Origin: Lactobacillus sp.
GTDB lineage: Bacteria; Bacillota; Bacilli; Lactobacillales; Lactobacillaceae
NCBI GenBank assembly: GCA_022483245.1
Contig: JAKVNR010000001.1
Coordinates: forward strand, 620,001 to 684,000
Length of the DNA stretch: 64,000 bases
Direction: 5' to 3'
Below are positions 35,342 through 63,146 of the stretch, in pieces; position 1 is the first letter of the stretch, and every line of letters begins with the position of its first letter. The notes beneath the pieces were generated by a model. The model was not told the DNA's origin, did no database searches, and saw only the letters and a program-made list of their open reading frames with translations. Both the position numbers and the translations under genes were made by a program.

Positions 35342-35515
35342 AAACTGTTGTCTTTAGCTTAGGAGGTCAGCTGGGCATGATCAAGTTAAGACGGTCTATT
35401 TTTCGATAGAAAGCTTTACTGGCTGCGGGCAGCAAATTAGAGACCGGGCACTGCTCTTTTGATACAATTAAGAGCGGCAACTGACAAACGCCTCCCTTGA
35501 AAGGAGGTGAACTCA

Positions 35516-35611
35516 ATGCACGACTTGTTTAAATACGTCATTGCCCCAACAATCGTTGGAATAGCAGTGTCGCTATTTGAATGGTGGCTAGGCCATTTTG
35601 GTAATGATTAA
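35516..35611 (+). CDS. TA1: Fst-like type I toxin, MHDLFKYVIAPTIVGIAVSLFEWWLGHFGND
   Basis: SD aaggaggtg, ATG, hydrophobic IAPxxVG core typical of the Fst family, extended -10 TGATACAAT at 35460-35468, terminator 35663-35696. Confidence 0.88.
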   Translation: MHDLFKYVIAPTIVGIAVSLFEWWLGHFGND

Positions 35612-35659
35612 GTAAGGTTGCCACCTAACCCGCCCGCTTGTTGATCGTAACAAGTGAAA

Positions 35660-35736
35660 AATAAAAGCACTATCTCTGGAACAGATAGTGCTTTTTGCGT
35701 TACTCAATGCATATGAATTGTTTAAATACGTTGCAT
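35660..35736 (-). ncRNA. TA1 antitoxin antisense RNA (converging, shares terminator)
   Basis: Minus-strand extended -10 TGATATACT (35741-35746); DR ACTCAATGCATATGAATTGTTTAAATACG matches toxin start region; terminator 35663-35696. Confidence 0.75.
35663..35696. terminator. TA1 shared bidirectional terminator
   Basis: AAAAGCACTATCTCTGGAACAGATAGTGCTTTTT. Confidence 0.85.
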
Positions 35737-35802
35737 ATTCAGTATATCATAAAGAATAAAATATAATCTATAAGTATGCTTTATAGTTTAAGGATATCAA
35801 AC

Positions 35803-35885
35803 AAAAGCACTACCTCTCGTACAGATAGTGCTTTTTGCGTTGTTTGATGCATAGACCTGATTCAATGCGTCGCATACTTAGTATA
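35803..35885 (-). ncRNA. S1: solo antitoxin unit without adjacent toxin ORF
   Basis: Terminator 35803-35836, DR and -10 (35880-35885); 35821-35937 is identical to 36243-36359. Confidence 0.7.
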
Positions 35886-35937
35886 TCATGAATTGGCTTT
35901 TAAACAATCAAATTAGAGGGGGATCTATTTTGATAAA
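35821..35937. repeat. 117-bp repeat copy 1 (second copy at 36243-36359)
   Basis: Letter-by-letter identical, constant 422-bp offset. Confidence 0.95.
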
Positions 35938-36077
35938 TGTAATACATCTACATTGACTAGATATATTAGTGGTTATATTTATATGCAAATCTCAGCCGAA
36001 CGAGCCCTATACTTATAATTTTGATACAATTAAGAGCGGCAACTGACAAACACCTCCCCTGAAAGGAGGTGAGTTTG

Positions 36078-36176
36078 TTGCACGACCTGATTCATTACGT
36101 CATTGCCCCGATTATTGTCGGTATAGCAGTGTCGCTATTTGAATGGTGGTTAGGCCATTATGGCAATGACAAGTAA
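36078..36176 (+). CDS. TA2: Fst-like type I toxin, (TTG)HDLIHYVIAPIIVGIAVSLFEWWLGHYGNDK
   Basis: SD gaaaggaggtg, TTG start, extended -10 TGATACAAT (36025-36030), same architecture as TA1. Confidence 0.85.
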   Translation: MHDLIHYVIAPIIVGIAVSLFEWWLGHYGNDK

Positions 36177-36221
36177 AGGTTGCCACTTAACCCGCCCGCT
36201 TGTTGATCGTAACAAGTGAAA

Positions 36222-36297
36222 AATAAAAGCACTATCTCTGATACAGATAGTGCTTTTTGCGTTGTTTGATGCATAGACCTGATTCAATGCGTCGCAT
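36222..36297 (-). ncRNA. TA2 antitoxin antisense RNA
   Basis: Minus -35 TTGTTT / extended -10 TGATATACT (36302-36307); DR GATGCATAGACCTGATTCAATGCGTC matches toxin TTGCACGACCTGATTCATTACGTC; terminator 36225-36258. Confidence 0.75.
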
Positions 36298-41899: not shown

Positions 41900-42039
41900 G
41901 TAGCAATAATGATTATACACGTTTTCACAGTTAGCGCAAATTCTGATTACCTATTTTAAATAATCGTACTTTTATTTCTTTTTGACAAAAACGCCCCAGA
42001 GAAATTAATATCCGAGGCTTTTTTGTGTTGCTCTATATA

Positions 42040-42118
42040 TTTTCAACTCATCGCACCGATTTTCGTCGGTATAGCACTAAAACTATTTGATTGGTAGCAC
42101 GACAGTCACGCAATAATA
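42040..42118 (+). pseudogene. Decayed Fst-like toxin with in-frame TAG (FQLIAPIFVGIALKLFDW*HDSH)
   Basis: Matches the IAPxxVG core; TGG to TAG relative to paralogues; no SD. Confidence 0.65.
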
Positions 42119-42329
42119 AGTAACAGTTGCCATTTACCCGCACGCTTATCATTGCAAGTTAAGTATACCATGTTTATTTGATTCGATTACCATTCTTAGC
42201 TAAGTATAGTCTAAGAGGTTTTCCAATTTTGACTGTAAATTGCTAGGCTAATAACCTATTGCATCCTATATTTTGATACAATTATTATCGGCATCTGGCA
42301 TACGCCTCCCCGAAAGGAGGTGAACTCGC

Positions 42330-42425
42330 TTGGACTTTTTTCAACATATCGTGGCTCCGATCATTGTCGGTTTAGTCATGCGGCTAATTGATTACTTACT
42401 CAATAATCATGGTCACGATAAGTAA
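42330..42425 (+). CDS. TA3: Fst-like type I toxin, (TTG)DFFQHIVAPIIVGLVMRLIDYLLNNHGHDK
   Basis: SD gaaaggaggtg, extended -10 TGATACAAT (42277-42282), terminator 42474-42507. Confidence 0.85.
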   Translation: MDFFQHIVAPIIVGLVMRLIDYLLNNHGHDK

Positions 42426-42470
42426 CCAGTGCCTTTGAGTACACACGTTTGTACATTGTGACAAGCGAAA

Positions 42471-42541
42471 AATAAAAGCACTATCTCTCAACCAGATAGT
42501 GCTTTTTGTGTGACTCGCTTGGACACTTTTTCAACTTATGA
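42471..42541 (-). ncRNA. TA3 antitoxin antisense RNA
   Basis: Minus extended -10 TGCTATAAT (42546-42551); DR GACTCGCTTGGACACTTTTTCAACTTAT matches toxin AACTCGCTTGGACTTTTTTCAACATAT. Confidence 0.75.
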
Positions 42542-60347: not shown

Positions 60348-60450
60348 TTACTGTTTATAAAGTTCAAGGAAGTGTCCGATTCAGCTATCTTCTTTGATAT
60401 AATTAACGCTGGCAACTGACATACGCCTCCCTTGAAAGGAGGTGAATTTG

Positions 60451-60549
60451 ATGCATGATATTTTCGTATTCATCGTTGCTCCGCTTTTAGTCGGAATAAC
60501 TCTTAAGTTATTTGACTGGTGGCTCAGCAGTCACGGCAACGATAAGTAA
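60451..60549 (+). CDS. TA4: Fst-like type I toxin, MHDIFVFIVAPLLVGITLKLFDWWLSSHGNDK
   Basis: SD gaaaggaggtg, extended -10 TGATATAAT (60398-60403), terminator 60595-60628. Confidence 0.9.
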   Translation: MHDIFVFIVAPLLVGITLKLFDWWLSSHGNDK

Positions 60550-60591
60550 CGGTTGCCATGAGCCCACACGCTCATAGTTGCATGAGCGAAA

Positions 60592-60668
60592 AATAAAAGC
60601 ACTATCTGCCCACTAGATAGTGCTTTTTGTGTTGTTTGATACAAATGATATTTTCATATCCGTTGCAC
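60592..60668 (-). ncRNA. TA4 antitoxin antisense RNA
   Basis: Minus -10 TATAAT (60673-60678); DR TTTGATACAAATGATATTTTCATATCCGTTGC matches toxin TTTGATGCATGATATTTTCGTATTCATCGTTGC. Confidence 0.75.
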
Positions 60669-60816
60669 CTTTATTATAGATGAACAAGCATAAAAAGCCA
60701 AATCTTAATTAAAACGCGCTACCACAATATAAAATAATAAGCCAATTAATGAGCCTGTTTTGATATAACTAACGCTGGCAGCTGACATAAGCCTCCCTTG
60801 AAAGGAGGTGAATTCA

Positions 60817-60918
60817 ATGTTCCAGGACTTTTTCAAGTTCGTCGCTGCCCCGATTATTGTCGGTATAGCACTTAAGCTATTTGACCGGTGGCACGAAAGT
60901 CATGGCAACGATATGTAG
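60817..60918 (+). CDS. TA5: Fst-like type I toxin, MFQDFFKFVAAPIIVGIALKLFDRWHESHGNDM
   Basis: SD gaaaggaggtg, -10 TGATATAAC (60764-60769), terminator 60966-60999. Confidence 0.87.
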   Translation: MFQDFFKFVAAPIIVGIALKLFDRWHESHGNDM

Positions 60919-60962
60919 CAGTTGCCTTCGGCTCGCACATTCATCAGTTGCGGTGAATGTAA

Positions 60963-61037
60963 AAGAAAAGCACTATCTCTGTAACAGATAGTGCTTTTTG
61001 CGTATTCAGTGCAGAAAATATTTTTAAATTCGTTGCA
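60963..61037 (-). ncRNA. TA5 antitoxin antisense RNA
   Basis: Minus extended -10 TGTTATACT (61043-61048); DR TATTCAGTGCAGAAAATATTTTTAAATTCGTTGC. Confidence 0.7.
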
Positions 61038-61241
61038 TGTTTAGTATAACAGGACAAACGAAAATAAACATAATTAAAATCTGAATTATAATGTTTTTGC
61101 ACTAAATTAAAATTCTCCCTATGTCGGTTGCAGACTAGCCTTATTTGAAATCGCGATGGTTAAAACCAGTTTGAGTGCATGTTGCTTGCTAGTAAGCCAG
61201 ATCCCATATATATTAAGCATATCTTGAAAGGAGAAGTTCCG

Positions 61242-61484
61242 ATGGTTAAAGTCAAAATCATAAAAATTGGTCATTCCAAAGTTCTTCCCGTTCCTAAAGC
61301 ATTCAAAACCATTAGCACTGAATATGAAGCCTTTTTAGGTAGAGATGGTGCGATTACTTTCTTGCCGGTGACTCTCAATCCCTTTGACAATAAAGACTCT
61401 ATTAAAAAATATGGCAAATTCAATGGCGATACTACTTGTTTCATCGACGTTGGGTTTACTGATAAAAAATATGAAGACCTATAA
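61242..61484 (+). CDS. PemI/MazE-like (AbrB-fold) antitoxin, apparently solitary
   Basis: MVKVKIIKIGHSKVLPVPKAFKTISTEYEAFLGRDGAITFLPVTLNPFDN; SD gaaaggag. Confidence 0.75.
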   Translation: MVKVKIIKIGHSKVLPVPKAFKTISTEYEAFLGRDGAITFLPVTLNPFDNKDSIKKYGKFNGDTTCFIDVGFTDKKYEDL

Positions 61485-61558
61485 TGAGAGAGCAAAATTT
61501 TAAAATTACAAGGAGACGGCCGATTCAGCCGCTTTCGACCCGTACCTTCGTCAGTTGA
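61484..61558 (+). pseudogene. Truncated PemK-like toxin remnant MREQNFKITRRRPIQPLSTRTFVS*
   Basis: TAATG overlap with the antitoxin stop as in pemIK operons; N-terminal MRE.../RRP elements only. Confidence 0.4.
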
Positions 61559-61569
61559 GACAAACGTAA

Positions 61570-61645
61570 AAGAAAAGCACTATCTGTAAGAGAGATAGTG
61601 CTTTTTGCGTGTCCAGTGCATAGGACATTTTCAAGTTCGTTGCAT
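61570..61645 (-). ncRNA. S6: solo Fst-type antitoxin unit
   Basis: Terminator 61573-61606; -10 TATACT (61650-61655); DR CCAGTGCATAGGACATTTTCAAGTTCGTTGC; no toxin ORF. Confidence 0.7.
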
Positions 61646-61778
61646 ACTCAGTATAACATGCCACACGAAAATAAGCATAGTTAAAATCTGAATGGGAAAT
61701 TTTTCCTCACCAACCAACAAAAATCCCCCTACATTCATATATGCAGTGGTGTTAAAATGAACTTGTCATTGTGAGGAA

Positions 61779-63146
61779 ATGGAAAGGAAGAATACAATGA
61801 AAAAAGCATCGGCCTTATTAGGCTCTTTGCTGTTCAGTGTTGGTTTGCTGGCAGTCAGCGGTCAAGCTGTTAAAGCGGACACCGTTCAACCTGCACAAAC
61901 AACTGCCACTGAACAAGTCCAAACTACCCAAACCACTGCTGAGCAAACTGCAACTGATCAAACTACTGACCAAGTTGCTACTAACGCTCCAGCAGTTAGT
62001 CAACAGTCAACGACGCAGATCAACTACGTTAAAGGCTACGGCGTTAACCTGTGGCAATTAAACGCTGATCAATCAGTTTCTTGGACTGGCCGCCGTTTAA
62101 CGACTGGCACCAAGTGGAAGACTTTTGGCTACACTGATTTGTCTAAGAGTCAGCAGCGTGTTTACAACTTGGGCGGGAACCAATGGATTTACGCTCAATA
62201 CTTAGTTGACGCTGGTACGAAGCAAAAAGTTGCTGGTTACCAAGCTGCTAGTTCACAGACTAAACCAAGTGGCCAAACGCCTGCGCAAACAACTGACATT
62301 ACCCCAGCTGCTAACGGCACGGTCGGAATTGTTGGCTACCGTCCAAGTTAGGGGACTGTTTTATACAGTTTAAACGGCAATACTGCCACCCCAACTGGCC
62401 GCTTCTTGAAGAACGGGACCGCTTGGAAGATCGTTGGTTCTAAGACCATCAACGGCACTACTTACTACAATTTAGGCGGCAACCAATGGGTTAACGCAGC
62501 TTACATTGTTACTGGTAATGCCAACGGTGCTTACCGCGTTTTAAAGAGCAACCCAAGTTCTCGTGAATACTACACTAGTCAATACAACCCAGTCTTTGCA
62601 CCTTGGGGCTGTGCTTCTTCTGCTTTGTCCATGCTGATGAAGTATGATGGCAACTGGAAGAACGTGCCGGGCAATTCTGAAAAAGCTAAGTTGACCTATA
62701 TGCAAAACCACCTGCCACGCAACAAGGCTAACGGTGGTCAAGACGGTGATCCTTACACTGGTAGAGGCTTCAGCCGCGTAATTCTGTCATACCGGTTAAC
62801 TCAATATGCCCACAGCTTAGGCGACGCAAAGATCGTTGATGTTTCTGGCGTATCTTTGAGCGGAATTATTGATTTGATCAAAGGCGGCAAGCCAGTTCTT
62901 TACTACGGCTGGTCATCATACCAAGCTGGCGGTGCTCGCAACCACTGTAAAGTAATCTTCGGCTACAACGCTCACAATAATACTTTCCTGGTTCACGATC
63001 CGTTGTACCAATACAAGTACTTCTACCGTGGTGGTGGCGGTATGCGTGAAGGCGTCCGCAACGGTTACGACTTAGGCCCAATCGCTTGGGTTTCAGCCCG
63101 CACCATTGCTCGTGAATACGCAGGCAACGCATTAACCATTCACTAA
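61779..63146 (+). pseudogene. Secreted SLAP-domain protein with C39-like peptidase domain, interrupted by in-frame TAG at 62349-62351
   Basis: Signal MKKASALLGSLLFSVGLLAVSGQAVKA; two SLAP-like segments; C39_2-like YNPVFAPWGCASSALSMLMKY...HCKVIFGYN...VHDP; both ORFs in the same frame. Confidence 0.82.

What the first reader, a model, noticed from the sequence alone, without database searches (positions are those of the whole stretch)
60411..60588. Conserved long-range 5'/3' helix and a covarying stem in the toxin mRNAs
The mRNA 5' end pairs with bases just after the toxin stop in every intact copy: TA4 GGCAACTG (60411-60418)/CGGTTGCC (60550-60557), TA5 GGCAGCTG/CAGTTGCC, TA1 and TA2 GGCAAC/GTTGCC, TA3 GGCA(t)CTGG/CCAGTGCC. 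A second stem before the terminator keeps pairing with different sequence: TA1 GCTTGTT/AACAAGT, TA3 CGTTTGT/ACAAGCG, TA4 CGCTCAT/ATGAGCG, TA5 ACATTCATC/GGTGAATGT. Compensatory change is strong evidence for functional RNA structure. The first helix parallels the upstream helix known in fst RNA I.
Basis: seen in the sequence. Interest (0 to 1): 0.75.

Follow-up and report, generated by a model that had tools for sequence, protein, structure and literature searches.

The report
Folded Fst-type toxin messenger RNAs
The two helices are real and belong to the known RNA fold of a bacterial toxin-antitoxin family (Fst/par), but comparing about 100 relatives also reveals a conserved pseudoknot, absent from the public family model, that ties the toxin's coding region to the RNA's tail.

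Summary
Both helices exist at the stated coordinates in all five window copies, and in a sixth elsewhere in the genome. The RNAs are the toxin mRNA (RNA I) of Fst/par-type type I toxin-antitoxin loci: all five toxins pass NCBIfam Fst, and Rfam RF02848 (RefB11) matches all five, two above its gathering score. Both helices are already drawn in RF02848, and the 5'/3' 'upstream helix' is a published conserved feature of par loci, so the finding as written is known.

With 97-101 homologues the pre-terminator stem covaries significantly and the upstream helix is kept through sequence change.

New here: the strongest covariation lies elsewhere. A hairpin late in the toxin gene conflicts with the one drawn in Rfam, and its loop (Trp-Leu codons; TA4 GGCUCA 60521-60526) pairs with the 3'UTR just after the upstream helix (UGAGCC 60559-60564), forming a pseudoknot. 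It is 93-95% paired; own arms beat sister-swapped arms 18:2, and it recurs in most held-out homologues. I infer that it locks the compact, untranslated, stable form of RNA I. SprA1 of S. aureus, an Fst relative, has probed pseudoknots, so the idea is not unprecedented. No expression or probing data exist for these loci.

The parts
60398..60403 (+). TA4 RNA I promoter -10 (TATAAT); inferred start at about 60411
   Evidence: sequence and spacing; start site inferred, not mapped
60411..60418 (+). TA4 upstream helix, 5' arm GGCAACTG at the inferred 5' end
   Evidence: partner 60550-60557
60425..60443 (+). TA4 5' stem-loop sequestering the Shine-Dalgarno (GCCTCC 60425-60430 / GGAGGT 60438-60443)
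   Evidence: pair probability 0.98
60451..60549 (+). TA4 Fst-family toxin ORF, 32 aa (MHDIFVFIVAPLLVGITLKLFDWWLSSHGNDK)
   Evidence: NCBIfam NF033608 32.2 bits, cut-off 26; Pfam PF13955 27.7 bits, below its cut-off of 36
60472..60479 (+). TA4 helix P2, 5' arm ATCGTTGC; partner GCAACGAT 60536-60543
   Evidence: 87% of cells paired, 5 of 8 pairs with double changes; 22:2
60536..60543 (+). TA4 helix P2, 3' arm
60495..60512 (+). TA4 coding hairpin AATAACT/AGTTATT
   Evidence: 93.7% paired; E=0; 21:1
60513..60533 (+). TA4 C-terminal coding hairpin TGACTG/CAGTCA (60513-60518/60528-60533); its loop holds the pseudoknot strand
   Evidence: E=0; 20:1; excludes the hairpin drawn in RF02848
60521..60526 (+). 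TA4 pseudoknot, 5' strand GGCTCA (Trp-Leu codons)
60550..60557 (+). TA4 upstream helix, 3' arm CGGTTGCC, directly after the stop codon
60559..60564 (+). TA4 pseudoknot, 3' strand TGAGCC in the 3'UTR
60569..60588 (+). TA4 pre-terminator stem CGCTCAT/ATGAGCG
60595..60627 (.). TA4 bidirectional terminator shared with the antisense RNA
   Evidence: 13-14 bp stem; A/T tracts on both sides
60590..60666 (-). TA4 antisense RNA II (antitoxin), inferred; -10 at 60673-60678
   Evidence: duplex with own RNA I start region -33.3 kcal/mol; ends inferred
60777..60999 (+). TA5 RNA I: upstream helix 60777-60784/60919-60926, pre-terminator stem 60937-60945/60952-60960
35476..35696 (+). TA1 RNA I: upstream helix 35476-35481/35617-35622, pre-terminator stem 35635-35643/35648-35656, pseudoknot 35586-35591/35625-35630 with one mismatch
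36038..36258 (+). TA2 RNA I: upstream helix 36038-36043/36179-36184, pre-terminator stem 36197-36205/36210-36218, pseudoknot GGTTAG 36148-36153/TTAACC 36187-36192
42290..42507 (+). TA3 RNA I: upstream helix 42290-42298/42426-42433, pre-terminator stem 42446-42452/42461-42467, pseudoknot TACTCAA 42397-42403/TTGAGTA 42435-42441

Best explanation
Each copy is the toxin mRNA (RNA I) of a chromosomal Fst/par-type type I toxin-antitoxin locus. Its 5' end is paired with bases just after the stop codon (upstream helix), which should shield it from 5'-end decay as shown for pAD1 RNA I. The Shine-Dalgarno is held in a 5' hairpin. The coding region folds on itself (P2 and two hairpins), and the loop of the last coding hairpin pairs with the 3'UTR immediately after the upstream helix, forming a pseudoknot. 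A separate stem precedes the bidirectional terminator. Together these make a compact, stable, translation-poor RNA. Antisense RNA II binds across the start region into the P2 5' arm and at the terminator. A ribosome reaching the stop codon must open the pseudoknot and the upstream helix, so the protected state should last only on untranslated RNA. Shown by sequence and covariation: the family, the helices and the pseudoknot. Inferred: protection, translational silence and the effect of the ribosome.
For: Family: NF033608 cut-off met by all five toxins; RF02848 hits to all five with both helices in the model; RNA II complementarity. Structure: 88.5% of cells paired, 420 double-change cells versus 152 in shuffles, slid partners 28-42%. 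R-scape-like tests: every pair at E<0.05 lies in the proposed helices, including stem 2 and the pseudoknot, and so do the top nine pairs. Sister-swap test: pseudoknot 18:2, stem 2 23:4, P2 22:2, hairpins 21:1 and 20:1, four control region pairs flat. Third base of the Leu codon pairs with the 3'UTR base in 85 of 91. Held-out homologues: 14 of 18 keep at least 5 of 6 pseudoknot pairs by alignment column, two more by shifted register. Upstream-helix function in pAD1, and conservation of 5'-end and Shine-Dalgarno sequestration in par homologues: PMC7472228.
Against: No expression, probing or stability data for these RNAs. In pseudoknot-free folds the upstream helix is not the minimum-energy partner in TA1, TA2 and TA5. 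No upstream-helix pair is individually significant in the R-scape-like test, and under a stricter rate-weighted null the best pseudoknot pair falls to E=0.68. Several genus members have imperfect pseudoknot helices. Most homologues were gathered with the Rfam model and could favour its helices, though not the pseudoknot or the revised hairpin, which it lacks.
Confidence: 0.76

Rival explanations
1. Only the Rfam secondary structure is real: the upstream helix, P2, the hairpin UUGACC/GGUUAG drawn in RF02848 and the pre-terminator stem. The pseudoknot is a by-product of conserved Trp-Leu codons and a conserved CUAACC motif.
For: RF02848 draws this hairpin; GGUUAG and CUAACC are each conserved, so even cross pairs form all six pairs 42% of the time.
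Against: The Rfam hairpin is only 74.8% paired, with one of six pairs showing double changes and one pair at 35%. Its replacement and the pseudoknot are 87-95% paired, and all 12 pairs show double changes. Own beats swapped arms 18:2; TA3 (TACTCAA/TTGAGTA), TA4 (GGCTCA/TGAGCC) and L010 (GGCCAG/CTGGCC) compensate fully.
Confidence: 0.1
2. The pseudoknot form and the Rfam hairpin form are two states of a switch. As in timP, slow folding into one state makes the mRNA translatable, and antitoxin binding resets it.
For: The two pairings exclude each other and both are possible in many sequences. A 2024 commentary proposes a conformational switch for fst because no processing has been found (PMC11295053); timP uses a pseudoknot switch (PMC11228461).
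Against: The alternative hairpin shows little covariation; the pseudoknot is far from the ribosome-binding site; nothing here shows two states.
Confidence: 0.2
3. The 3'UTR arms matter mainly as protection against 3' decay or as terminator insulation; the upstream helix has little role at these loci because other pairings win.
For: The pre-terminator stem is predicted at 0.94-0.98 probability in all copies but TA4 (0.47), while the upstream helix loses in TA1, TA2 and TA5.
Against: The upstream helix is present in 100 of 101 homologues and its arms fit each other better than permuted arms; pAD1 data show a 5'-end stability role (PMC7472228).
Confidence: 0.1

Closest known systems
par locus of pAD1 (Fst / RNA I / RNA II), Enterococcus faecalis
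   Same: Convergent toxin mRNA and antisense RNA, bidirectional terminator, direct-repeat complementarity at the start region, Shine-Dalgarno hairpin, upstream helix at the 5' end (PMC7472228).
   Different: Chromosomal, several copies per genome; the pseudoknot and the pre-terminator stem are not mentioned in the passages of the review that were read; function untested.
Rfam RF02848 RefB11 (Enterococcus sRNA B11)
   Same: Same RNA; its model already holds the upstream helix, P2, the first coding hairpin and the pre-terminator stem.
   Different: It draws a different C-terminal coding hairpin and leaves the 3'UTR pseudoknot strand unpaired. TA1, TA3 and TA5 score below its gathering score.
Lpt type I system of Lacticaseibacillus rhamnosus plasmids
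   Same: Fst-type peptide, predicted upstream helix and Shine-Dalgarno hairpin, direct-repeat complementarity (PMC5608710).
   Different: Plasmid-borne; the authors found no chromosomal homology.
SprA1/SprA1AS of Staphylococcus aureus (Fst family)
   Same: An Fst-family toxin mRNA reported to contain two pseudoknots by probing, one opened by the antitoxin (PMC8383071).
   Different: Whether either corresponds to this one is unknown; its sequence was not fetched.
timP/TimR pseudoknot toxin mRNA (enterobacteria)
   Same: Unprocessed type I toxin mRNA in which a pseudoknot matters (PMC11228461).
   Different: There it lies in the 5'UTR and activates initiation; here it joins the coding region to the 3'UTR.

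Membership tests
Fst/par type I toxin-antitoxin | Fst-type toxin peptide | tested here: met
   All five pass NF033608 (26.5-33.8 bits, cut-off 26); PF13955 matches below its cut-off. The signature Trp is replaced by Leu in TA3.
Fst/par type I toxin-antitoxin | Convergent antisense RNA sharing a bidirectional terminator | tested here: met
   Minus-strand -10 boxes and palindromic terminators with A/T tracts; transcription not shown
Fst/par type I toxin-antitoxin | Antisense complementarity at the toxin start region (direct repeats) | tested here: met
   TA1-TA4 own duplexes -33 to -37 kcal/mol versus -7 to -25 cross; TA5's adjacent RNA II is weak (-17.9)
Fst/par type I toxin-antitoxin | Shine-Dalgarno hairpin (5'-SL) | tested here: met
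   Pair probability at least 0.96 in all copies
Fst/par type I toxin-antitoxin | Upstream helix sequestering the 5' end | tested here: met
   not the minimum-energy fold in TA1, TA2 and TA5
Fst/par type I toxin-antitoxin | Toxicity and antitoxin repression | not testable with these tools
   needs experiment
Rfam RF02848 RefB11 | Score at or above the gathering threshold (54 bits) | tested here: inconclusive
   TA4 68.8 and TA2 56.2 pass; TA1 41.0, TA3 40.0 and TA5 34.1 are below it with E of at most 0.0053
Rfam RF02848 RefB11 | Consensus structure including hairpin UUGACC/GGUUAG | tested here: not met
   74.8% paired, no covariation support; replaced by hairpin plus pseudoknot

The most novel reading that the evidence does not exclude
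A conserved pseudoknot between the Trp-Leu codons and the 3'UTR acts as the activation switch of Fst-family toxin mRNAs. It holds RNA I in a stable, silent form and must be opened or rearranged before or during translation, answering how unprocessed Fst mRNAs become translatable.
Probability: 0.22. Interest if true: 0.75.

Novelty: new variant of a known kind. Interest (0 to 1): 0.48.

Why it matters
The two reported helices confirm a known RNA fold in a new host. The added pseudoknot gives a concrete, mutable target for an open question: how Fst-family toxin mRNAs, for which no processing is known, are kept silent and then activated (raised in PMC11295053). It also shows that a public RNA family model used for annotation probably draws one hairpin wrongly, and that part of the toxin's coding sequence is under RNA-structure as well as protein constraint.

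Tried and rejected
An alternative pairing of the pre-terminator loop with the 5' end, seen by eye in TA4 and TA5, was dropped because TA1 and TA2 lack it. TA5's pseudoknot first looked broken by alignment column (4 of 6), but a bulged register gives -9.9 kcal/mol, so that idea was dropped. Programmed frameshifting at the pseudoknot was considered and rejected by eye for lack of a slippery site. The Weaver 2009/2012 and Shokeen 2009 papers are not held. No paper naming RefB11 was found. The pAD1 and S. aureus sprA1 sequences were deliberately not fetched; they are cited only.

Full report
What was checked. The window is G000:C1:620001-684000 of a 1.56 Mb genome. The closest named relatives of a neighbouring ATPase are a Lactobacillus MAG and Limosilactobacillus secaliphilus. 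The five toxin copies all match Rfam RF02848 (RefB11): TA4 68.8 bits and TA2 56.2 exceed the gathering score of 54; TA1 41.0, TA3 40.0 and TA5 34.1 do not, with E of at most 0.0053. A sixth copy lies at G000:C1:1382224-1382401. All five peptides pass the NCBIfam Fst cut-off.

The observation. In the literature the 5'/3' helix is the 'upstream helix' of fst RNA I. It sequesters the 5' end and stabilises the mRNA, and par homologues broadly keep the intramolecular pairing that sequesters the 5' end and the Shine-Dalgarno (PMC7472228); Lpt RNA I has it too (PMC5608710). Caution: in pseudoknot-free folds the helix is the preferred partner in TA3, TA4 and the sixth copy only.

Homologues. RF02848 hits occur in 18 of 75 genomes of the genus, 37 of 401 of the family and 72 of 400 of the order. 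A protein-only search of the genus finds largely the same loci. From these I took 97-101 distinct RNAs with a sequence-only profile and MAFFT.

Own arms pair better than permuted arms: upstream helix -15.9 versus -12.5 kcal/mol (permutation sd 0.24), pre-terminator stem -8.2 versus -5.9 (sd 0.18). A helix of at least 7 bp joins leader and post-stop region in 100 of 101 sequences versus 29% of shuffles. With arms located by sequence alone, 93.6% of upstream-helix cells pair versus at most 90.2% in 2000 permutations. For the pre-terminator stem all six pairs show double changes. Permutations do not respect kinship, so I swapped arms between path-disjoint sister sequences: stem 2 own better 23:4 (p=1.6e-4); upstream helix 17:10 (sign p=0.12, Wilcoxon p=0.003); four control region pairs flat.

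An R-scape-like test (G statistic with APC, null from substitutions re-scattered along a FastTree tree) gives six pairs at E<0.05 on 97 sequences and six on 76 sequences under 90% identical. All lie in proposed helices, and the nine best pairs do too. They mark coding hairpin 135-150, coding hairpin 152-174, helix P2, the pre-terminator stem, and a pair joining the loop of the second hairpin to the 3'UTR (A3 columns 166-228, E=0.02). That loop, GGUUAG in the consensus, covers Trp-Leu codons; the partner CUAACC directly follows the upstream helix 3' arm. It is a pseudoknot: 95.4% of cells paired in the 97-sequence alignment, 92.7% in the tool alignment with double changes in all six pairs, own versus sister-swapped 18:2. 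The third base of the Leu codon, free at the protein level, pairs with its 3'UTR base in 85 of 91. Variants include GGCTCA/TGAGCC (TA4), TACTCAA/TTGAGTA (TA3), GGCCAG/CTGGCC, GGTTAA/TTAACC and GGTGGA/TTCACC. In 18 held-out sequences 14 keep at least 5 of 6 pairs, including a protein-found group with GGCTAA/TTAGCC; two more do so in a shifted register and two lack it. Under a stricter rate-weighted null the best pseudoknot pair falls to E=0.68 while one pair in each coding hairpin and one in stem 2 stay significant, so the pseudoknot rests on the combined tests rather than on one E-value.

Conflict with Rfam. RF02848 pairs GGUUAG with UUGACC in a local hairpin. That helix is 74.8% paired with one of six pairs showing double changes, and one of its pairs is 35% paired. 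The replacement hairpin is 87-88% paired with double changes in all six pairs. The Rfam hairpin is probably wrong or a minor state.

Mechanism. Shown: family membership, helices, pseudoknot, and antisense complementarity of the RNA II of TA1-TA4 to their own start regions (-33 to -37 kcal/mol). Inferred: the outer helix protects the 5' end, the 5' hairpin hides the Shine-Dalgarno, and P2, the coding hairpins and the pseudoknot lock a compact untranslated form. Because the upstream-helix 3' arm and the pseudoknot 3' strand lie within about 20 nt after the stop codon, a ribosome reaching the stop should melt both; protection would then belong to untranslated RNA only. A switch between the pseudoknot and the Rfam-type hairpin is possible, and commentators have suggested a conformational switch for fst (PMC11295053), but the alternative hairpin lacks covariation support.

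Novelty. The finding as stated is known. The loci are new members of a known family. The pseudoknot is a feature not in the Rfam model and not mentioned in the passages I could read on fst or Lpt, but SprA1, an Fst relative, has two probed pseudoknots (PMC8383071), and the key structural papers on fst RNA I were not held, so priority cannot be claimed.

Noticed in passing
window 60777-61704: TA5's adjacent antisense RNA pairs weakly with TA5 RNA I (-17.9 kcal/mol), whereas the apparently orphan antisense RNA starting near 61643 (minus) pairs at -32.8 (shuffled mean -13.5, min -25.1). TA5's best-matching antitoxin seems to sit 600 bp downstream, in the repeat copy 61526-61704, beyond an intervening ORF.
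   Followed up: partly
window 35770-35890: A second orphan antisense unit without toxin, start near 35873 (minus), nearly identical to TA2's RNA II (-34.7 kcal/mol with TA2 RNA I).
   Followed up: partly
window 42038-42091: A decayed Fst toxin fragment (22.5 bits, below cut-off) with no leader, about 250 bp upstream of TA3.
   Followed up: no
L193 and L111: In the MAG with a 91% identical ATPase, a TA copy also lies downstream of the ATPase gene but is TA3-like, not TA4/TA5-like: same position, different module.
   Followed up: partly
window 61239-61484: An ORF of about 80 aa between the TA5 repeat units, by eye reminiscent of a small antitoxin; no Pfam match.
   Followed up: partly
window 61779-63146: A secreted SlpA/C39-peptidase-like protein (second part matches PF13529 and PF03217) is interrupted by a stop at about 62350; likely a pseudogene.
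   Followed up: partly
G044, G047: Two other genomes of the genus also carry five or more Fst loci, some in tandem, suggesting repeated expansion.
   Followed up: no
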